From NCBI GenBank assembly GCA_947444305.1, contig CANEZP010000001.1, positions 206,151-270,150 of the forward strand: a stretch of DNA of 64,000 bases. Direction: 5' to 3'. The notes beneath the pieces were generated by a model, which saw nothing but the letters and a program-made list of their open reading frames with translations, searched no databases and was not told where the DNA came from. This DNA is from Pseudobdellovibrionaceae bacterium. GTDB taxonomy: Bacteria > Bdellovibrionota > Bdellovibrionia > Bdellovibrionales > UBA1609. The stretch's first letter is position 1; every line of letters starts with the position of its first letter. The position numbers were made by a program, and so were the translations under genes. This document shows positions 9,852-35,644 of this stretch, in pieces.

Positions 9852-12800
9852 TTATAGTAGGTCGTTGCAGGTTGGGGTTTTTAGGGTGCGGAGTTTGGTT
9901 GGGGTTAGGTTTTTGGTTTTCATTGTGGCTAGGAGTTCTTCGTTGATGTTGTAGATGGCGCGGGCTTCGATGAAGCGGTTGCGGCGGTCTTCGTTTGGGA
10001 TTCTTGATGGGTGGTTTATTCTTAAGGCCGCGTCGAGGAGATCGTTGGTGGCGGGTTGGAAACCGTCTTTGCGCCAGAGTTCTTTAGCGATATCGAGGAG
10101 ACGGTTTTTTGCGGTCGCCGGTGCGATGCCGAATTTTTTTAGGAAAAGAACATCGGCTTCGATTTCGGTGTTCCACGGAAACGACTTTACCGCGCCACGG
10201 GCTGCGTGCGGGCTTCTTTCCGGCACGGATGCTAAAGTTTTAAGGATGCGGGCTCGCCACTTAAGATCAGCATTAAGGGCCGCGGTGAGCGAAGGTTTAA
10301 GCGAGGCTTTGTACTTATCGTTCTCTTCCGCAGAATGGAAACTGCCCCAATAGTTTTCGGCGAGGAGGCCGATGGCGGCGAGTTCGCCGGCCTTGCCTTC
10401 ATCCTTCATCCAATCGAAAATGATCGCGCGCGATTTCTCGGAAGCAAGGCTGATCGCGATGGCTAATTGTTGTGAGAACCCGGTGTTCTCGGTGCCGGCA
10501 TGACGAATAAGATAACGAATCGCTTTTTGATCCGCGAGGCTGATTTTGTCGTTCGTGCGTAAACGCAGATAAATTTCGAGATAAAAGTTTGCGGCGAGAC
10601 TCGCGCGCTCAAGGGTGGGACGGTCGCCGTCCATCTTGACGCTGGGATGGCTCAAAGGTTGTTCAAGGACCGGCAGGTCGGCGAAATTTTCGACGAAGAA
10701 TTTAGTATGGTCTTTCGCGAATTCGCGCATGAGGCTTTGAATGCCCCAGTCACTTTTCACTTTGCGCGATAAGGTTAGATATTCTTCTTTCACTTTGCTT
10801 GCGTAGAGCGCGAGCCCCGGGTTGTCTTGATTGAACATCTGGCTACTGACCACAAAGTTCCAGTATCCGGGGGTCGAGAGAGTTCCCGGTTGAGCATCGT
10901 GGAGACGTTTAAAAAAGGCCTCTTTTTGGGCGTCTAAGTCTTGGACATAATATTTGCGAATGAGGGCGCGTAAGAAAGCCCGGTCTCTTTTCTCATCCCA
11001 GGGGAAGTCACTTAAAAAATAGAGGTCTCCCGAGGCCAGGATTTCCTGCTGTAAACGCGCGAGAATTCGCGGCTGGTTCCAAAGATCTTTTAGAGCCTCA
11101 TGGGTGTCCGGACGTATGAGTACGATCGGCTGGTCGCCGTCTTGTAAACGCGCGATGCGCTTCAAAGCGAGGTCGCGAAGCGGACCCGGCGTGCTCAACA
11201 GCGCGCGAAATCTTTCGGCGGTGGACCGGTCGATAGGTCCTTTAAGAAGATCACGCACCGACTTCGAATCTTCGGCGGAAATGGTGGTTAAGCCTTCGGC
11301 CGCCTGGTTCGCGATTTTCTCCGTTCGCCAACCACTTGGGTAATCTTTGGCGCGGGATTTGAGCCCGGCAATGCTCAAGGCCGAGTAAAATCGTTTGCGC
11401 AATAAGGGATCGGCAATCAATTCGGGGCTGCGCACGCTGCGCAGAGCTTGTTCCTCATCGGTGTAGTCCGGACGGAGGCCGTAGATTTTTCCGAGTTGTT
11501 CAATGACGAGAGGAATATCCTTCCGCACGGTCGCGATCATCCGGTTGAGGCGTTTGAGCGCAAGCTGATCTCTTTGTTCATCCCAAGGGAAGTTTTCGAA
11601 CGCCTGGGAAAAACTAATTCCTCCATGGTCCTCCGTGATGAGCGACTCCATGCGGGTAAAGAGATTTTGGCGCCAAAGAGGATCCGCGGCGATGGTCTGC
11701 CTTAATCCTTGGCGAAGGTCTTTGAGCGAAGCTTCGACCGTCGGGTCATTGTTTTTGTAGAACGCAGAAAGGGTCAAGAGACGACCGCTGTCGCCACCTG
11801 ACTTGAACGCCGTTAGGATTTCGCGACGTTCGGCGGCGTTAGATGCGGAGAAGTGACTCCCGAAAATGCGAATCGAGCGGAGCAGATTGTTGCCGGCGCT
11901 ATGGCGTACAAGGTAAGCGAGCGGTAGGCGTATGCGCTTCCGAAAGGCTTCGTCGCCGTTAAAGTATTCGCGGGCGGCGTGCGGTAGGGCCGGGAATCGG
12001 GCGGCGAATTTTTCCGGATCACGCTGCGCTAATTGGAAGAGCAGTGATTTTGTAATGCCGGTAGATCGCTCGAAGCGCCGTATCTCGGCCAAGCGCAGGG
12101 CCAACGCAGGATCACGAACCGTGGCTTCGTCAACGGTCGAAATATTGATGAGCCAAGACGCCTCAAGATAGCCGCGGCGTTGACCTTCGGTGAAGAAATT
12201 CGGCTGCGATTTATAGAGATCGCTTAGAAATTCAACTTTGCGGCCTTTAAAATCCGGCAAATAAAATTTGTTGATCAGCACTCCAAGAATCTCAAAGTCA
12301 CGGTCAATGCGCCAGTCGAGATCGTGGAAATCTCCGTACAAATGCGTCGTGGCCTTGAAGGCGGCGAGTAGCCGGGTTCGGAATTCCGGTTTGAGCAAAG
12401 ATTGATTGAACTGGATCGAGCCGCGCAGGCTATGGAGATTTGCGATCATCAGAAGGGCAATGGGATCGTCGCCGGCCTTCGGATTCGAAATCCTATTTAA
12501 AGTCAGTCGACGCATTTCTTCATTGCCGCCGAGCATCTCCCAAATGATCTTCCGGTTGCCGTCGGTGATCGGGGTCGAAAGAACCTGTCTCAAAAAAGCT
12601 AAGTCCGAACCGTCGAGATCCTTTAATTTTTTGTCTTTTGACTGGTGGGTGAGACGCCAGATCCGGTCGTCGAACTCTTGCTTCGGGGTTTCCTCCGGCT
12701 TTCTATCGTCCGGTGAGATACGATTGAGAATGGTTTCGAAGACGTCGGCGTATTCGTGAACGATGCGGGCGCGATTAAAGCGATCGCGCAACGCTTGGTC

Positions 12801-15632
12801 CCCGATCGCGAAGCTACTTACCGAACTCAACATGAAGTTATCCGTGAGGGAAAAGCCGGCCTGCCCAAAAACTTCGGCACGCATCGATTCAAAATCAGGC
12901 CCGGCTTTGGTCTCTGGAGTGTAGAATTCTTTGATAAACGCTAAATCGCCCGGGATGCGTTTCGTGAAGGGAAATCCGGCGATGGCGAAACGAGCCTCGT
13001 ACGAAAATGAACCAAAAAGATCGTCCCGCAAAGTTTTTAGTATCGTCGCCCGGTAGGTAAGATCCCTACCTAACAGGGCATTCATAAAATCGAAAGCCGG
13101 CTGGTAAATCGCCTTAAGATTCGCGCGTTCCATTCTATCGGTATTTACCCTACCGGCAAAAGCCACGAGCGAAAGCATCGCGTGATGATTTCCGCGCAGA
13201 AGTGTCGCGATCCAATCTCTCGAGGCCGGGTCGGCGTTATTAATTAGTGTCGCTAAGACCAGAGTGGGGCCGTTGATATCCCGTTCACTTTTTCTAAAGT
13301 GGCGTACCAAATACCGTATGGCCGCGCGCTCGTCTTCGTTTAAACTTTTTTTCGACTGTAAGTTTTGGGTGATTTGCCAAAATAACCGGCCCACCTCTGA
13401 GCGCGGCGGAGTTGAACCGTTAAAAGTTTTTTCGTCAAGGTTACGAAGACCCTTAAACGCCTGGGGCCAGTCGGGGTAGGTCTCGAGAAAAGCAAACGGA
13501 AAATGTTCGGCGATCTCTTCCGCCAAGTGTGCGGTCTTCAGACTTTTCAGGCGCCAATCTTTGACACGCGCGGCGAGCTTCCGGTCGATCAAGCTATCGG
13601 GAATAATCTTTGCGAGCACCTCTCTCGAAGTGTGTTGTAAGATCCATGGCTGGTCTTTGAGTAGCGCGGGTTGTTTTTCGTAGATGGCGCGGAGCAATTT
13701 CATTTCTTCTTCGCGTGCGTACGGGGCGGGCTTGTTCGCTTCCATCGCGTTTTTTAGCCGGGCGATGAAAACACCGATGGGTTCCGCTTCGGGAACGTTG
13801 GCCATGCCCAAGGCCTTCGCGTACGAGTAGACCATTTGGTATTCTTTGTAAGCGATGAACATCTCGCGTGGTTCAGTCTTATCTAGATTTGCGGTCAATC
13901 GAGATTTTAGTGCGGCGATCAAACTTCCCACGTCGTTCTTCATATCGAAGGCTTCGACGTTAAGAATAAGGACGACGCCGTTTGTGTTGAGCAGAAGATC
14001 AATCCCGTAGTGTCGGGCTAGGTATTGGTGAAAATCAATTTTAAGTTTTTTCGCCTCGGCGCGGACCTGGTCCATAAACGGGTGAGCCGTGTCGGCGCGT
14101 AGAATATTGATGCGGGCGTCGCGTTTTACTGCCAGTTGAAACACGAAGCCTTCGGAAGCCGCGTATGATCGTGCGACGTCTTCCGACGGTGAAGAATATC
14201 CCCCGGTGCCTTGGGCGTAACCGCCCTGAAGGTTGTGACCTCCGCTGACGATCAGGCCGCCCCTAAGAATGGACATCGCGTTCGTGAGCGTCCTGGTGCC
14301 ATGGTAGAGAAAGCCGTGAGCGGTATGTTCTTTGATAAATTGGTTTACCGGCACGAGTAGTTCTCGCGGGAAACCGTTAAGCTCGCTTTTTAGTCTGGCG
14401 CTGCGAATTTCGAGCAGTGAGGAATCAACGAACTCCGGAATAACCGTTTTCCTATATTTTGCGTAGATCAGATCGTTGAGCTGTAGAATCAAGCTTTCGA
14501 GGCTTTGCTTGCCGCCACGGTAAAGCCGGTTGTGCGCGCCCGAGAATCGCGCGTTGCGAACGATTTTGTTGAATTGATCGAGTGCTTTTTCGGAAACTTC
14601 GGAGCCGCCATTGACCTTCTCGATCAAAGCCAGCAGTTCTTGCTTAAATTGTTCGTCATCTAAAACGCTTAAGAAGGGGAGCTCCAGCAACGGACGAATG
14701 CCGCGCACCGTTTGTTTGTCGCTGTCTTTTTGTTTTTCCCCGCTCGCGGGCGCGACGTAGCGATACCAACCGCTCAGCATTTCTTGAACGATGTACGAGT
14801 GAGTTTGCGGCAAGCGAAAGCGTCCCGCTTCGACATCGAACGCGAGGAAATCGACGACCGACCCGCCCTGACGGGTGGCGAGCCCGATCTGCTCATCGTA
14901 AGGCTTCGTATCGCCGACGGTAAAAATGCTTCGTTTATGATCGCCTTTCATGGCGCGGGCGTCGTACTTCGTTTCCGCCGAATTCGTGATTTCGGTAATC
15001 TTGTTGATCGCTTCGCCGGTCAAATCCTCCGGCCCATCAACGAGAACATCAAAATCACTGCCGACGCCGCGAACGGTGAAGCCGAGCAGATCACCTTTTT
15101 CGTCCGCGATTTCTTTTAAGATTTGATTCGGGTCAAGATTCGGGTTCGCCTGCATGCGCCGGTAAAGAACCGCGTAGACGTAACTGACGACCGAACGGAC
15201 CACGCCCCCGCTGGGCATCACTTTAACTTTCGGATTCAAGTGACTTCGTAAATAATCAAAGTAACGAGCGTTCTGTAGCTCGCCGCCGGCGGTGACCACC
15301 GGTACGGTCAGACGGTTGAAGATCGAAGCTAAGGCCGCTTCTAAATTAAGTTGCGCTTCATTCAAGATATTCTGCGGGATTCCATCCGGGCGTTTGCCAC
15401 GCCATTGCCGCGCGAGAAAGTAGTTCGGGAACTCGGTCTGGACGTTAAAGACCGGGCCCTGCTGAACCGGTAGGAGCTCAGGTTGGCGCCCGGCTTGGGC
15501 GTGGACGGGCAAGGGCAGCGCCGTGGCGGCGGCCACTACGATACCGAGCCAAAATTGTCCTACGCGTGCCCATAACTTCGTCAGATCATGCTCCTCAAAT
15601 AGCGCTGGCACCGGCAGATTCCGCCGTTTCAC
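9852..15632 (-). CDS. Giant exported protein with nucleotidyltransferase-like and PARP-like domains plus long repeats
   Basis: The 1926-residue product has an export signal (FWLGIVVAAATALPLPVHAQA, cleavage near residue 47). Residues 140-270 resemble polymerase-beta-fold nucleotidyltransferases: GGVVR at 142-146, SDFDVLV at 192-198 and a third acidic site at D261 (VVDFLAFDV). Residues 440-562 resemble a PARP catalytic domain: FLYHGTR, then SILRGGLIV, then GTGGYSSPSEDVARSYA, giving the His and Tyr of the H-Y-E triad; the Glu position appears replaced in NTNGVVLIL. Residues of about 650-1926 form helical superrepeats of about 465 aa, with YLVRH-type motifs near 777, 1239 and 1707. The domain calls rest on motif comparison by eye. 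The start is GTG 15632 without a good ribosome site; a CTG start at residue 17 behind GAGGAG would give a more normal signal peptide. Neighbours are other exported proteins. Confidence 0.75.
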   Translation of the reverse strand: MKRRNLPVPALFEEHDLTKLWARVGQFWLGIVVAAATALPLPVHAQAGRQPELLPVQQGPVFNVQTEFPNYFLARQWRGKRPDGIPQNILNEAQLNLEAALASIFNRLTVPVVTAGGELQNARYFDYLRSHLNPKVKVMPSGGVVRSVVSYVYAVLYRRMQANPNLDPNQILKEIADEKGDLLGFTVRGVGSDFDVLVDGPEDLTGEAINKITEITNSAETKYDARAMKGDHKRSIFTVGDTKPYDEQIGLATRQGGSVVDFLAFDVEAGRFRLPQTHSYIVQEMLSGWYRYVAPASGEKQKDSDKQTVRGIRPLLELPFLSVLDDEQFKQELLALIEKVNGGSEVSEKALDQFNKIVRNARFSGAHNRLYRGGKQSLESLILQLNDLIYAKYRKTVIPEFVDSSLLEIRSARLKSELNGFPRELLVPVNQFIKEHTAHGFLYHGTRTLTNAMSILRGGLIVSGGHNLQGGYAQGTGGYSSPSEDVARSYAASEGFVFQLAVKRDARINILRADTAHPFMDQVRAEAKKLKIDFHQYLARHYGIDLLLNTNGVVLILNVEAFDMKNDVGSLIAALKSRLTANLDKTEPREMFIAYKEYQMVYSYAKALGMANVPEAEPIGVFIARLKNAMEANKPAPYAREEEMKLLRAIYEKQPALLKDQPWILQHTSREVLAKIIPDSLIDRKLAARVKDWRLKSLKTAHLAEEIAEHFPFAFLETYPDWPQAFKGLRNLDEKTFNGSTPPRSEVGRLFWQITQNLQSKKSLNEDERAAIRYLVRHFRKSERDINGPTLVLATLINNADPASRDWIATLLRGNHHAMLSLVAFAGRVNTDRMERANLKAIYQPAFDFMNALLGRDLTYRATILKTLRDDLFGSFSYEARFAIAGFPFTKRIPGDLAFIKEFYTPETKAGPDFESMRAEVFGQAGFSLTDNFMLSSVSSFAIGDQALRDRFNRARIVHEYADVFETILNRISPDDRKPEETPKQEFDDRIWRLTHQSKDKKLKDLDGSDLAFLRQVLSTPITDGNRKIIWEMLGGNEEMRRLTLNRISNPKAGDDPIALLMIANLHSLRGSIQFNQSLLKPEFRTRLLAAFKATTHLYGDFHDLDWRIDRDFEILGVLINKFYLPDFKGRKVEFLSDLYKSQPNFFTEGQRRGYLEASWLINISTVDEATVRDPALALRLAEIRRFERSTGITKSLLFQLAQRDPEKFAARFPALPHAAREYFNGDEAFRKRIRLPLAYLVRHSAGNNLLRSIRIFGSHFSASNAAERREILTAFKSGGDSGRLLTLSAFYKNNDPTVEASLKDLRQGLRQTIAADPLWRQNLFTRMESLITEDHGGISFSQAFENFPWDEQRDQLALKRLNRMIATVRKDIPLVIEQLGKIYGLRPDYTDEEQALRSVRSPELIADPLLRKRFYSALSIAGLKSRAKDYPSGWRTEKIANQAAEGLTTISAEDSKSVRDLLKGPIDRSTAERFRALLSTPGPLRDLALKRIARLQDGDQPIVLIRPDTHEALKDLWNQPRILARLQQEILASGDLYFLSDFPWDEKRDRAFLRALIRKYYVQDLDAQKEAFFKRLHDAQPGTLSTPGYWNFVVSSQMFNQDNPGLALYASKVKEEYLTLSRKVKSDWGIQSLMREFAKDHTKFFVENFADLPVLEQPLSHPSVKMDGDRPTLERASLAANFYLEIYLRLRTNDKISLADQKAIRYLIRHAGTENTGFSQQLAIAISLASEKSRAIIFDWMKDEGKAGELAAIGLLAENYWGSFHSAEENDKYKASLKPSLTAALNADLKWRARILKTLASVPERSPHAARGAVKSFPWNTEIEADVLFLKKFGIAPATAKNRLLDIAKELWRKDGFQPATNDLLDAALRINHPSRIPNEDRRNRFIEARAIYNINEELLATMKTKNLTPTKLRTLKTPTCNDLL

Positions 15633-15689: not shown

Positions 15690-16256
15690 TTACGGTTGAG
15701 CGTAGAGCAGAATGGCGGTGAGACCTTCGACGCCGGCTTCGTAGTCGCCGTTGAAAGTCTTCGAACCTTGCGCATAGCCGAGTTTCATCCCGGGCTCGTT
15801 GCCCGTGCCCGTGAGCGATCGCTCAAGTGAATTCATCAGCCAATCCGAATTTTGCGCCAGATTATAGCCGTTGCCCGAACCCATGTAAGTTGTCTCGTTG
15901 AGCGTATCGAAATTTTCACCGCGAATTGAGCGCTTGATCGCTCTCACACCGTAAGCTCCGTCGGTCATAAGCTGGGTCACTCCGTGGCGGCCGCCGTTGT
16001 TCATAAGCGCAGTCACCGTTTGCGCCATGGTGAATGATCTGCCGCCGACGAAGGGCCGGCATTGTTGTAGATCGATTTGTTCTAATTCGCCCGCGCTCGA
16101 GCAACTGAAGAACGTAAATCTGGAGATTCCGTTCTCTTGGCGTTCGCTCTGAACGATTACCTTTTTTTCGGATCCGATGTCTTGCATAACGATCGCCCGG
16201 CCCGCGAAAGCAGATGAACTAAAAAAGCCTGCGAGAAGGAAAATGAATTTTTGCAC
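15690..16256 (-). CDS. Secreted protein of unknown function
   Basis: A 188-aa protein with a clean signal peptide (FIFLLAGFFSSSAFAG). The mature chain has few cysteines (CSSAGELEQIDLQQC) and a Gly/Asn-rich centre; I see no family. GTG 16254-16256 is preceded by AGGAG seven bases upstream, which fixes the start. It lies just upstream of the giant exported protein on the same strand, 57 bases apart, and may be cotranscribed with it. Confidence 0.7.
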   Translation of the reverse strand: MQKFIFLLAGFFSSSAFAGRAIVMQDIGSEKKVIVQSERQENGISRFTFFSCSSAGELEQIDLQQCRPFVGGRSFTMAQTVTALMNNGGRHGVTQLMTDGAYGVRAIKRSIRGENFDTLNETTYMGSGNGYNLAQNSDWLMNSLERSLTGTGNEPGMKLGYAQGSKTFNGDYEAGVEGLTAILLYAQP

Positions 16257-16411: not shown

Positions 16412-16939
16412 TCAAGCCGAACTTCGCGGCCCGAACTCCCGCACGATGATATCGGCGTAGTCACGATCATGGCCTTGTCCCTCGAGCTGATTGACGAGGA
16501 CGTAATCTCGCACGTTTAGAAACGCTTGGTACCCAATCACCACTCGCGTGAACGGGCGGTAATCCCAAAATCTTTTCTTGTTCTTCTTAAGCTTACTCGC
16601 CTTAGTAATGACCAACGCAATCGTTCCCGTAATGGCCCGGATGAATGGCCGGTAGGTGAACCTATTGGCGAGTTGAATATGCAGGTGGAGGTGATTTCCC
16701 ACGTTGGCGACCGAATGAATACGCACGCCGTTCTTTTTTGCGAAACGATCAATGATTCCCCGAACTGTTTTCCGGTGCTTCAGGAATGATTTTTCGCCTT
16801 TGGCTTGGGTCGAACGCAGCACGAGGTGGATTGATTTCTTTTCCGCGAGGGGTCGGTGCCCTTGCCGGCCTTTTCTTTTGTTACGGTAAAGGCCTCCGTA
16901 AAACTTTTTTTCTGGTTTGAGCAGGGGAATTTGCTTCAT
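16412..16939 (-). CDS. REP-associated tyrosine transposase (IS200-like, Y1 family)
   Basis: The 175-aa product has the HUH motif NHLHLHIQL and a downstream catalytic tyrosine candidate in NVRDYVLVNQLEGQ, the layout of Y1 single-strand transposases. The basic N-terminus and internal position without obvious IS ends match RAYT proteins, which are thought to act on REP-type hairpins. A hairpin suited to be such a target lies about 100 bases upstream (17040-17063). Start at ATG 16939; the frame stays open further upstream but without a better site. It seems intact (no frameshift). Confidence 0.8.
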   Translation of the reverse strand: MKQIPLLKPEKKFYGGLYRNKRKGRQGHRPLAEKKSIHLVLRSTQAKGEKSFLKHRKTVRGIIDRFAKKNGVRIHSVANVGNHLHLHIQLANRFTYRPFIRAITGTIALVITKASKLKKNKKRFWDYRPFTRVVIGYQAFLNVRDYVLVNQLEGQGHDRDYADIIVREFGPRSSA

Positions 16940-17039
16940 TGGTGACCGATGGTATTGCGGGTGGGGTCGGTTGTCAATTTGCGTCTTCGAGGAGGCTGTT
17001 TTTGTTTTGCGTTGATTCGTCCGTCCGTGCAAAGGCCTT

Positions 17040-30112: not shown

Positions 30113-33100
30113 ATGGACCGTAATCTCATCGCCAAAAAAGGCGCCAAGAATAAATCTAAAGCCGCGCCCGCCAAGGCCGCGATGTCGAAGCAAAACGTCA
30201 TCAAAACGAAAGTGATGGGCGGGGCCGGCGTCACGAGTTCCCCCGAGACGCTCGCCACGCCGACGAAAGCCGCGATCGCTTACACCGAATATTCGACCTC
30301 CATTCCCGAGCAGCAGAGCCTGCGCGCGCAATTGCGCCAACTTTATCAAGTCGTCAAAGCCGTCCGCAACGGTGACTTCATGGTGCGCATGAAGCTTGAA
30401 GAAGAAGGTATCGTTTCCGAAATCGGCGAAGTGCTCAATGACATCATCGAGCAGAACGAAAACATGGCGAACGAATTCGTGCGCGTGCGTAACATCATCG
30501 GCCTCGAAGGGCGCATGACCGAGCGGGTGAACATGGGCTCGGTCAAGGGGTCGTGGGCGACTTCGGTCGACTCGGTCAACTTGATGATCACCGATCTCGT
30601 GCACCCGACGACGGAAGTCGCGCGGGTTATCACCTCGGTGGCCAAAGGCGATTTGTCGCAAAAAATGTATCTGGAAGTCGATGCCCGCCCGGTGAAGGGC
30701 GAATTTTTGCGCATCGGTACGACCGTCAACGCGATGGTGGATCAGCTTAATTCGTTCGCCTCCGAAGTGACACGGGTCGCGAAAGAGGTCGGTACCGAAG
30801 GGAAACTCGGCGGTCAGGCGAACGTAAAAGGTGTTTCCGGGGTTTGGAAAGATCTGACCGATAACGTGAACGTCCTTGCCGGTAACTTGACCGATCAGGT
30901 TCGTAACATCGGTAAGGTGACGACCGCGGTGGCGAAGGGCGATTTGTCGCAAAAGATTACGGTCGATGCCCGCGGTGAGATTTTGGAATTGAAGAACACG
31001 ATCAACACCATGGTGGATCAGCTCTCCTCTTTTGCCGCGGAGGTGACCCGGGTCGCGAAGGACGTCGGTACCGAAGGGAAGCTCGGCGGTCAGGCGAACG
31101 TAAAAGGTGTTTCCGGAGTTTGGAAAGATTTGACCGACAACGTGAACGGTCTTGCCGATAACTTGACCGCGCAGGTTCGTAACATCGCGAAGGTGACGAC
31201 CGCGGTCGCGAACGGCGATTTGTCGCAAAAAATTACGGTCGATGCGCGCGGTGAGATTCTAGAACTGAAGAACACGATCAACACGATGGTGGATCAGCTT
31301 CGTTCCTTCGCGGCCGAAGTTACGCGGGTTGCGAAAGAGGTCGGTACCGAAGGCCGTTTGGGTGGTCAGGCCGACGTCAAAGGCGTTACCGGAACTTGGA
31401 AAGATTTAACGGACAACGTGAACGGTCTCGCGAACAACTTGACCGCGCAGGTTCGTAACATCGCGAAGGTGACGACCGCGGTCGCGAACGGCGATTTGTC
31501 ACAAAAGATTACGGTCGATGCGAAGGGCGAGATCCTTGAGCTGAAAGACACCATCAACACGATGGTCGATACGCTACGTTCGTTCGCGGCGGAAGTTTCG
31601 CGGGTCGCGAAAGAAGTCGGTACCGAGGGCCGCCTCGGTGGTCAGGCCGATGTGAAAGGCGTTTCCGGAACTTGGAAAGATTTGACCGACAACGTGAACG
31701 CGATGGCCTCGAACTTGACGGTTCAATTGCGCGACGTTTCGAAGGTTTCTAGCGCCATCGCGAACGGCGATTTAACGCAAAAAATTACGGTCGACGTTAA
31801 GGGTGAAATTCTTCAGATCAAAGACGTCATCAATAAGATGGTCGATCAGCTCTCAAGCTTCGCGGCGGAAGTGACGCGGGTCGCGAAGGAGGTCGGTACC
31901 GAAGGCAAGCTGGGCGGGCAGGCCGACGTAAAAGGTGTTTCGGGCACTTGGAAAGATTTGACCGATAACGTGAACGTCCTCGCCGGTAATTTGACCGATC
32001 AAGTTCGTAACATCGCAAAAGTAACGACCGCCGTGGCGAAGGGCGATTTGTCGCAAAAAATCACGGTCGATGCCAAAGGCGAAATCTTCGAGCTAAAAAA
32101 TACCATCAACGTCATGGTGGATCAGCTCAACTCTTTCGCCTCCGAAGTTACGCGGGTCGCGAAGGAAGTCGGTACCGAGGGCAAGCTCGGCGGGCAGGCC
32201 GAAGTTCGCGGCGTCTCCGGAGTTTGGAAAGATCTTACGGATAACGTGAACCAACTTGCCGGAAACTTAACGTCGCAAGTTCGAAACATCGCGAAGGTGA
32301 CGACCGCGGTCGCGAACGGCGATTTGTCGCAAAAAATCACGGTCGATGCACGCGGTGAGATCTTCGAATTGAAGAACACGATCAACACGATGGTGGATCA
32401 GCTCAACTCCTTCGCCGCGGAAGTTACGCGAGTCGCGAAAGAGGTCGGTACCGAAGGCAAGCTCGGCGGGCAAGCCGACGTCAAAGGCGTCTCCGGAGTT
32501 TGGAAAGATTTGACCGACAACGTGAACCAACTCGCCGGCAACTTAACGTCACAGGTTCGTAACATCGCGAAAGTAACGACCGCGGTCGCGAAGGGCGATT
32601 TGTCTTCGAAGATTACGGTCGACGCGAAAGGTGAGATCCTCGAGCTAAAGAACACGATCAACACGATGGTGGATCAGCTCAATTCCTTTGCGGCGGAAGT
32701 TACGCGGGTCGCGAAGGAAGTCGGTACCGAAGGTAAACTCGGCGGTCAGGCCGAAGTTCAAGGCGTCAGCGGCACGTGGAAAGATTTGACCGACAACGTG
32801 AATCAACTCGCCGGCAACTTGACCTCTCAGGTGCGTAACATCGCGAAGGTCACCATCGCGGTAGCGAACGGCGATTTGTCGCAAAAAATTACGGTCGATG
32901 CGCGCGGCGAAATTCTAGAATTGAAGAACACGATCAACACGATGGTGGATCAACTCAACTCCTTCGCCGCGGAAGTCACGCGGGTCGCGAAAGAGGTCGG
33001 TACCGAAGGAAAGCTGGGCGGGCAGGCCGAAGTCCGCGGCGTTTCCGGCGTTTGGAAAGATCTGACCGACAACGTGAACTTCATGGCTTCTAATTTGACG

Positions 33101-35644
33101 AAGCAGGTTCGCGGGATCGTGAAGGTCGTGACCGCGGTCGCGAACGGCGACTTGTCACAGAAGTTCGTCATCGAAGCGAAGGGTGAAGTCGCGGCGCTCG
33201 CCGAAACGATCAACACCATGACCGACACGCTCAAGACTTTTGCCGATCAGGTGACTTCGGTCGCGCGCGAGGTGGGCATCGAAGGAAAGCTCGGCGGCCA
33301 AGCGAAAGTGCCGGGCGCGCTAGGAACTTGGAAAGATTTGACCGACAACGTGAATTTCATGGCTTCGAATTTAACGAAGCAGGTTCGCGGGATCGTCAAG
33401 GTCGTGACCGCGGTCGCGAACGGCGACTTGTCGCAAAAGTTCGTCATCGAAGCGAAGGGTGAAGTCGCGGCGCTCGCCGAGACCATCAATAGCATGACCG
33501 ACACGCTCCGCACGTTCGCCGATCAAGTGACTTCGGTTGCGCGCGAAGTGGGGATTGAAGGAAAACTCGGCGGCCAAGCGAAGGTACCCGGCGCCGCCGG
33601 TACGTGGAAAGATTTGACCGACAACGTTAACCAGCTCGCGGGCAACTTGACCAGTCAGGTTCGCGCGATCGCCGAAGTCTCGACCGCGGTGACGAAGGGT
33701 GATCTAACCCGCTCGATCACGGTCGAAGCGCAAGGCGAGGTCGCGGCGCTCTCGGAAAACATCAACCAGATGATTTCGAACTTAAAAGACACGACGTCGA
33801 AGAATACCGAGCAAGATTGGCTAAAAACTAACCTGGCGCGTTTTTCGGGAATGATGCAAGGGCAGCGATCGATTACCGCGGTCGCGCAACTGATCATGTC
33901 CGAGCTCACGCCGCTGGTCGACGCCCGGCACGGCGCCTTTTTCATGTCCGAAGGCGACGATCTCGAAAGCAGTTTGATGCTCATCGCTTCGTACGCTTTT
34001 ACCGAGCGCCGCGGGGTTTCGAACAAGTATAGATTGAAAGAGGGCCTCGTCGGCCAATGCGCGTTCGAGAAGAAGCGCATTTTGATCACGCAACCCGATG
34101 ACAGCTACGTGCGCATCACTTCGTCGTTGCTCGAGATCACTCCGCGTAACGTTATCGTTTTGCCCGTCATGTTCGAAGGTGAATTGAAAGCCGTCATCGA
34201 ACTCGCTTCGCTTAAACCGTTCACGCAGAACTACATCACGTTCTTGGATCAGCTGATGGATTCCGTCGGCGTTATTCTGAACATGATTTCGAGCTCGATG
34301 CGTACGGAAGAGCTGCTGCAAGAGCTCAAACGATCCAACGCCGAACTCGAAGCGCAGGCGACCGAACTCGAAGACAAAGCGAAGCTACTGGAAGTTAAAA
34401 ACAACGAAGTTGAGTTGGCCTCGCGAAGTCTCGAAGAAAAAGCCGAACAGCTTTCGCTGATCTCCAAATATAAGTCGGAATTTTTGGCGAATATGTCGCA
34501 CGAGTTGCGCACGCCGCTCAACAGCTTATTAATCTTGTCGAAAACGCTGGCCGACAACAAAGACCGCAACCTCAGCCAAGACCAAGTGAAGTACGCGCGT
34601 ACCGTGCACAGCGCGGGTAACGATTTGCTCGCGTTGATCAACGAAATCCTCGATCTCTCGAAGGTGGAAGCCGGCAAAATGCCCGTGAATCCGAAGGCGA
34701 TCGAAGTGACCGAGATCGTTTCGTATCTCGAGCAAACCTTCAAGCCGGTGGCCGAACACAAAGGGTTGGATTTCCAAGTTGAAGCCGATCGCAACGTTCC
34801 TCGGCATATGTTCACCGACGAAAGCCGCTTGCAACAGATTCTCAAAAACTTGCTCTCGAACGCGTTCAAGTTCACCGAGAAAGGCATCGTAAAGTTGCAG
34901 ATCTCGCGCGGCCAATCGATCACCGATCAGAACATGATCGTGTTCTCGGTCACCGACACGGGCATCGGTATTCCTTCGGATAAGCAAAAACTTATCTTTG
35001 AGGCTTTCCAGCAAGCCGACGGTACCACCAGCCGCAAATACGGCGGCACGGGCTTAGGACTTACGATCTCGCGCGAGATCGCGCGTTTGCTCGGCGGTAT
35101 TATCGACGTCGAATCCGAACCGGGGCGTGGCTCGGTGTTCAAGTTGCACTTGCCCGAAAAATACATGGGCCCCGACGTCACGGTCGTTAGGGATGAACGT
35201 GAGTTGTTGCCGCCACGACCGAAGCTACCGCCCGACGTGGATCTGCGAGGGCACAAGATCCTGGTCGTGGACGATGACGTCCGCAACATCTTTGCGTTGA
35301 ACAGCGTGCTGAAGGAAAAAGGCATGCACGTGCTTCACGCCGAAAACGGACGCCTCGCCCTCGAAACTTTGGAAAAGCACAGCGACATCGAGTTGATCTT
35401 GATGGACACGATGATGCCCGAGATGGACGGATTGGAAGCCACCCGCCGCATTCGCGAGAATCCCATCCACCATAGCATCCCGATCGTGTCGTTAACGGCG
35501 AAGGCGATGAAGGGCGACCGCGAGAAGTGTCTCGAGGCGGGCGCATCCGATTACATCACTAAACCCGTGGATGAAGATACGTTGCTCTCGGCGATTTACG
35601 AATGGCTAGTTATCCGTAAGAACGACGATGCTCACGCGAACTGA
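30113..35644 (+). CDS. Hybrid histidine kinase with a giant HAMP-domain array
   Basis: 1843 aa, no membrane segment, so a cytosolic sensor kinase. Residues of about 60-1220 are a HAMP array: eleven tandem 92-residue units, each with a canonical HAMP ([15 protein letters not shown]...) and a divergent one ([10 protein letters not shown]...WKDLTDNVN). Then come a GAF-like domain (about 1234-1390), a coiled coil, HisKA with the phosphoacceptor His in [12 protein letters not shown] (about 1463), HATPase ([13 protein letters not shown]) and a receiver domain with [13 protein letters not shown] (about 1764). The layout recalls fungal Nik1/group III kinases and some Myxococcota and Bdellovibrionota kinases. 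It overlaps the next kinase by 17 bases. Confidence 0.9.
30690..33650 (+). repeat. Tandem 276-nt coding repeats (HAMP pairs)
   Basis: The codons for WKDLTDNVN begin at 30845, 31121, 31397 and so on to 33605: eleven copies with no insertion or deletion between them (ten intervals of 276 bases). Neighbouring copies are highly alike at DNA level; the last two units differ more ([13 protein letters not shown]). Confidence 0.9.

What the first reader, a model, noticed from the sequence alone, without database searches (positions are those of the whole stretch)
9852..15632. Exported giant protein combining a nucleotidyltransferase-like and a PARP-like domain
Seen: a signal peptide, then GGVVR (142-146) with SDFDVLV (192-198) as in polymerase-beta-fold nucleotidyltransferases, then residues 440-562 that read like a PARP catalytic core (YHGTR, SILRGGL, GTGGYSSPSEDVARSYA). 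Known: PARPs use a His-Tyr-Glu triad; here the Glu position appears to be lost, as in many mono-ADP-ribosyltransferases. Inference: a secreted or periplasmic modifying enzyme or toxin, possibly used against prey or other cells, with a repeat stalk of about 1250 residues. I know no described protein with this layout.
Basis: partly seen in the sequence, partly recalled or inferred. Interest (0 to 1): 0.85.

Follow-up and report, generated by a model that had tools for sequence, protein, structure and literature searches.

The report
Exported NTase–ADP-ribosyltransferase fusion protein
A bacterium related to Bdellovibrio encodes a very large exported protein that joins an enzyme fold otherwise used to finish tRNA ends to an ADP-ribosyltransferase (PARP-like) fold, a combination found so far only in that phylum and probably used on the molecules of another cell.

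Summary
ORF 9852-15632 (-) encodes 1926 aa, with every quoted motif at its stated residue. It belongs to a small exported family: a 42%-identical paralogue in the same genome and homologues in 8 more of 369 genomes of the phylum; none in plasmids, phages or viral contigs. Residues ~87-393 are a nucleotidyltransferase: Foldseek of the AlphaFold2 model puts class II CCA-/A-adding enzymes in all top 12 places, and G143, R146, D193, D195, D241, D261 are invariant in 8 homologues. Residues ~426-568 are an ADP-ribosyltransferase: His444 and Tyr479 are two of only three invariant positions in 10 homologues, and two homologues exceed Pfam's PARP cut-off. The third (Glu) position is variable, so the triad reads H-Y-x. 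The 1.36-kaa tail has degenerate long repeats and no detectable similarity between members, yet 7 of 10 members with a known end carry a cysteine in the last 13 residues; here it is the protein's only cysteine. Because NTP and NAD+ are largely confined to cytoplasm, an effector acting in another cell is the best guess. Substrate, secretion route and activity are untested.

The parts
9852..15632 (-). Gene of the exported NTase-ART protein, 1926 aa, GTG start
15495..15632 (-). Signal-peptide-like N-terminus, residues 1-46 (cleavage suggested after ...PVHA)
   Evidence: sequence; export signals in homologues with complete starts
14454..15374 (-). Nucleotidyltransferase head + neck, residues about 87-393, class II CCA-/A-adding-like
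   Evidence: AF2 pLDDT 84, pTM 0.85; Foldseek top 12 all CCA-/A-adding enzymes, prob up to 1.00
15195..15209 (-). GGVVR 142-146 (GGxxR motif)
   Evidence: G143 and R146 invariant in 8 homologues
15048..15056 (-). D193-x-D195, predicted metal-binding carboxylates
   Evidence: both invariant in 8 homologues; lost in L013 and one of them in L012
14910..14912 (-). D241, candidate third carboxylate in a predicted strand
   Evidence: invariant in 8 homologues; strand at model residues 193-198 = protein 239-244
14850..14852 (-). D261 in QGGxxxDFLxFD, the place of class II motif C (RRDFTxNALxxD)
   Evidence: invariant; profile-profile alignment to the CCA family starts here
14694..14708 (-). VRGIR 309-313, the place of the class II motif D region (EDxxRxxRxxRF)
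   Evidence: R310, R313 invariant; profile-profile alignment
13929..14357 (-). ADP-ribosyltransferase (PARP-like) domain, residues about 426-568
   Evidence: Pfam PARP matches in homologues down to E=7.8e-7; PARP folds in PDB and BFVD
14301..14303 (-). His444, predicted ART catalytic His
   Evidence: invariant in 10 of 10
14196..14198 (-). Tyr479, predicted ART catalytic Tyr
   Evidence: invariant in 10 of 10
9855..13928 (-). Tail 569-1926, degenerate long repeats, probably helical
   Evidence: HEAT_2 in the tail of homologue L011
9867..9869 (-). Cys1922, the only cysteine of the protein, fifth residue from the end

Best explanation
An exported, two-enzyme effector. Shown: an export signal, a class II CCA-/A-adding-like nucleotidyltransferase head and neck with its GG/R and Asp residues kept, then an ADP-ribosyltransferase fold with catalytic His and Tyr kept, then a long variable repeat tail. 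Inferred: after export the protein reaches another cell (prey or competitor), where NTP and NAD+ are available; the NTase adds a nucleotide to, and the ART mono-ADP-ribosylates (H-Y-x type), RNA or protein of that cell, blocking an essential process such as translation; the tail holds the protein at the cell surface or recognises the target, possibly using its lone C-terminal cysteine.
For: Export signals throughout the family. NTase: AF2 pLDDT 84, pTM 0.85; Foldseek top 12 all CCA-/A-adding enzymes, probability 0.63-1.00; invariant G/R/D/D/D/D; profile alignment to the CCA family scores above all of 200 column shuffles. ART: H and Y are two of three invariant positions; PARP matches above cut-off in L002 and L014; PARP folds in Foldseek. 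The genome has its own two PolyA_pol/CCA genes elsewhere, so this is not the housekeeping enzyme.
Against: No activity shown. Structural E-values are modest (NTase alone best 3.5e-3; whole core best 4.9e-4) and global TM-scores low (0.2-0.4). PF01743 does not match the protein. NTase carboxylates are lost in L013 and partly in L012, so the NTase is not needed in all members. The ART Glu is not conserved. No immunity gene or conserved neighbour was found and no secretion system was looked for beyond the neighbourhood. A predatory habit is inferred from relatives labelled Bdellovibrionaceae, not tested.
Confidence: 0.45

Rival explanations
1. ART effector with a dead or regulatory NTase: the ART is the working enzyme and the NTase domain only binds the target (for example a tRNA-like RNA) or a nucleotide.
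For: ART His and Tyr invariant in 10 of 10, while NTase carboxylates are lost in L013 and partly in L012.
Against: G143, R146, D193, D195, D241 and D261 are invariant in 8 homologues at 20-43% identity, unlike a dead domain.
Confidence: 0.25
2. NTase effector with a non-catalytic ART: the ART-like domain binds NAD+/ADP-ribose or RNA but lacks transferase activity because the Glu position is not kept.
For: The third position varies among members.
Against: His and Tyr would not be expected to be invariant; H-Y-x mono-ADP-ribosyltransferases of the PARP10/14/16 type are active (own knowledge).
Confidence: 0.12
3. Surface or periplasmic structural/adhesion protein in which both enzyme folds have been reused for binding.
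For: Long repeat tail, variable among members; lone C-terminal cysteine; NTP and NAD+ are scarce outside the cytoplasm (own knowledge).
Against: Conservation concentrates on the catalytic residues of both folds.
Confidence: 0.13

Closest known systems
Class II CCA-/A-adding enzymes and bacterial poly(A) polymerase (PF01743 head; PDB 3wfq/3wfp, 7oqx, 6qy6, 3h3a)
   Same: Predicted fold of residues 87-393; order of motifs GGxxR, DxD, carboxylate, D-h-L-h-h-D, R-h-h-R
   Different: The D of GGxVRD is missing; RRDFTxN is reduced to GGxxxDFL; about 35 extra residues between GG and DxD; exported; no PF01743 match; fused to an ART
PARP/ART superfamily (PF00644, DUF3990 PF13151, ART-PolyVal PF18760)
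   Same: ART fold, catalytic His and Tyr 35 residues apart, GxYxS motif
   Different: Glu not conserved; small domain (about 143 aa); inside an exported NTase fusion
MenT nucleotidyltransferase toxins (PMC10435456, PMC11541572)
   Same: Nucleotidyltransferases that extend tRNA acceptor ends to block translation: a model for how the NTase could act
   Different: MenT belong to toxin-antitoxin systems and have no ART; no sequence link to them was tested here
Phage polyvalent proteins with ART domains (reviewed in PMC9503650)
   Same: Large multidomain effectors carrying an ART that act in another cell; homologue L010 matches ART-PolyVal weakly along the domain (E=0.0041)
   Different: Virion proteins of phages; no similar protein found in the phage or viral collections

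Membership tests
ADP-ribosyltransferase (ART) superfamily | Sequence-profile match | tested here: met
   PARP 7.8e-7 (L014) and 3.3e-6 (L002), both over the Pfam cut-off; the window domain itself E=0.0087, below the cut-off
ADP-ribosyltransferase (ART) superfamily | ART fold | tested here: met
   AF2 core model pLDDT 84; viral PARP domain prob 1.00, TMt 0.59 over 127 columns; PARP1/2 hits in the PDB with lower scores
ADP-ribosyltransferase (ART) superfamily | Catalytic His and Tyr | tested here: met
   H444, Y479 invariant in 10 of 10
PARP (H-Y-E, poly-ADP-ribosylating) | Catalytic Glu on the last strand | tested here: not met
   Position variable; the window has NTNGVVLILN; exact register uncertain
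Class II CCA-adding/poly(A) polymerase | Fold of head and neck | tested here: met
   Top 12 Foldseek hits, prob 0.63-1.00, rmsd about 6-13 A, TM up to 0.39
Class II CCA-adding/poly(A) polymerase | PF01743 profile match | tested here: not met
   No match; the own genome has two matches, both elsewhere
Class II CCA-adding/poly(A) polymerase | Motifs GGxVRD, DxD, RRDFTxN, EDxxR | tested here: inconclusive
   GGxxR and DxD kept; motifs C and D only partly
Secreted effector/toxin | Export signal | tested here: met
   N-terminal signals across the family, by sequence inspection only
Secreted effector/toxin | Toxicity or target modification | not testable with these tools
   Needs bench work

The most novel reading that the evidence does not exclude
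A dual RNA-end-modifying effector: an exported CCA-adding-like enzyme and an ADP-ribosyltransferase in one chain that together modify the RNA (for example tRNA acceptor ends) of another bacterium during predation or competition, held by a lone C-terminal cysteine on an exchangeable repeat tail.
Probability: 0.15. Interest if true: 0.88.

Novelty: new variant of a known kind. Interest (0 to 1): 0.62.

Why it matters
CCA-adding-type nucleotidyltransferases are known as cytoplasmic housekeeping enzymes (own knowledge). An exported one fused to an ADP-ribosyltransferase suggests a new class of effector in the phylum of predatory bacteria, where I found no ART effector described in the open papers searched. 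It gives two active sites in one protein that point mutations can test.

Tried and rejected
PF01743 membership: no match. Homologues in plasmids, phages, viral contigs: none. A single-sequence pattern scan of 84,980 species genomes found nothing; the alignment-guided scan found only three phylum members, though such pattern scans miss divergent relatives. Operon partner: the upstream 188-aa exported protein has no homologue in 119 genomes of the order, and neighbours differ between members. C-terminal cysteine as a general export tag in this genome: 15/90 exported versus 15/172 other proteins, p=0.07, not supported. Papers on NTase-ART fusions or Bdellovibrio ARTs: nothing matching. D261 as the third carboxylate: the CCA alignment places it in motif C, so D241 is preferred.

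Full report
Observation. The ORF 9852..15632 on the minus strand encodes 1926 residues; all quoted motifs are at the stated positions. There is no tandem-repeat DNA in it and no Pfam or NCBIfam match for the whole protein.

Family. The same genome holds a second, 854-aa copy, 42% identical over residues 96-566. Of 98 other relatives, two genomes match; with a profile of four members, 9 of 369 genomes of the phylum match, the window's own included. The genome scan names three records: two are Bdellovibrionaceae bacteria (ARS45 and UBA1609) and one an unnamed bacterium. No match was found in viral contigs, plasmids or phages. The distribution is patchy: three other members of the same genus lack it. 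Nothing outside the phylum was found, but outside it only short peptide patterns were scanned.

Nucleotidyltransferase. AlphaFold2 with ten homologues gives a core model of pLDDT 84 and pTM 0.87; the NTase part alone gives 84 and 0.85. Foldseek of the core against the PDB puts the tRNA-processing (A-adding/CCA-type, own knowledge) chains 3wfq and 3wfr first (probability 0.99-1.00, best E 4.9e-4), followed by PARP catalytic domains. Foldseek of the NTase part alone lists CCA-/A-adding enzymes in all first twelve places, then FAM46C, another nucleotidyltransferase. E-values there are 3.5e-3 to 5e-2 and TM-scores reach 0.39, so the match is distant but consistent. Across eight homologues the invariant residues include G143, R146, D193, D195, D241, G256, G257, D261, R310, R313 and E317 (protein numbers are alignment numbers plus 46). 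A profile-profile comparison with CCA-adding/poly(A) polymerase homologues from the same order aligned residues 259-320 (VVDFLAFD...VRGIRPLLELPF) with the motif C-to-D region (score 26.6; 200 column shuffles reach at most 25.3; reversed control 22.6). This is supportive, not conclusive. The genome carries two ordinary PF01743 genes elsewhere, so the window protein is not the housekeeping enzyme.

ADP-ribosyltransferase. The ART domains of the paralogue L002 and of L014 exceed Pfam's cut-off for PARP; L012 matches PARP and DUF3990, L010 matches ART-PolyVal weakly along most of the domain, and the window's own domain gives PARP E=0.0087. Profile search of the PDB lists mainly PARPs and other ARTs among its weak hits. 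Of 144 positions only three are invariant in ten homologues: His444, a Gly, and Tyr479. Their spacing (35) and the second Tyr 11 residues further on are those of PARPs (own knowledge of PARP1). The third residue is not kept: the last strand reads NGVVLILN here, NEHVLIQN in the paralogue, DNEILVKN in L011. H-Y-x ARTs are known as mono-ADP-ribosyltransferases (own knowledge), so this does not imply inactivity.

Export and tail. Homologues with complete starts have an N-terminal export signal. Tails range from 140 to 1359 residues and show no similarity to one another by BLASTP, while the core is conserved. In the window protein, residues 685-927 resemble about 1620-1858 (z=16), 991-1144 resemble 1433-1582 (z=9) and 1261-1463 resemble 1727-1926 (z=7). 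One homologue's tail matches HEAT repeats, so a helical solenoid is likely. Seven of ten members with a known C-terminus carry a cysteine in the last 13 residues; in the window protein and L018 it is the only cysteine.

Mechanism. Shown: folds and conservation of two active sites, and export signals. Inferred from established biology: NTPs and NAD+ are largely confined to cytoplasm, so an exported enzyme pair that needs them most likely works in another cell. In this phylum the obvious other cell is prey, but this host's lifestyle was not tested. The MenT toxins (PMC10435456, PMC11541572) show that a nucleotidyltransferase can block translation by extending tRNA ends, which is a plausible model. 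I put the domain identities at about 0.9 and the effector mechanism at about 0.45.

Novelty. Literature searches for NTase-ART fusions and for ARTs in Bdellovibrio returned nothing that describes this layout; the library holds open-access papers only. Both folds are known; their exported fusion with a variable tail appears undescribed.

Noticed in passing
window 9867-9869; L017, L018, L019, L020, L021, L026 C-termini: A cysteine within the last 13 residues in 7 of 10 family members with known C-terminus, although the tails are not detectably similar; the only cysteine in the 1926-aa window protein and in the 1104-aa L018 protein. Unexplained; might be a handle for a disulfide or other covalent attachment.
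   Followed up: partly
L048:9779-13747 (-) (same genome, contig C1): Unrelated 1322-aa exported beta-propeller-like repeat protein whose only mature cysteine is also in its last residues (...GIMSCPAP).
   Followed up: partly
L026:3152-4846 (-) (genome G275): A 564-aa homologue that keeps only the end of the ART domain plus a tail; looks like a truncated or decayed copy in a genome that also has a full-length member.
   Followed up: no
window 30113-35644 (+): 1843-aa ORF with about ten 276-bp tandem repeats (80% identical).
   Followed up: no
window 16412-17032 (-): IS200/REP-associated tyrosine transposase-like gene close upstream of the NTase-ART gene.
   Followed up: no
window 15690-16256 (-): 188-aa exported protein just upstream, without homologues in 119 genomes of the order and without a Pfam match.
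   Followed up: yes
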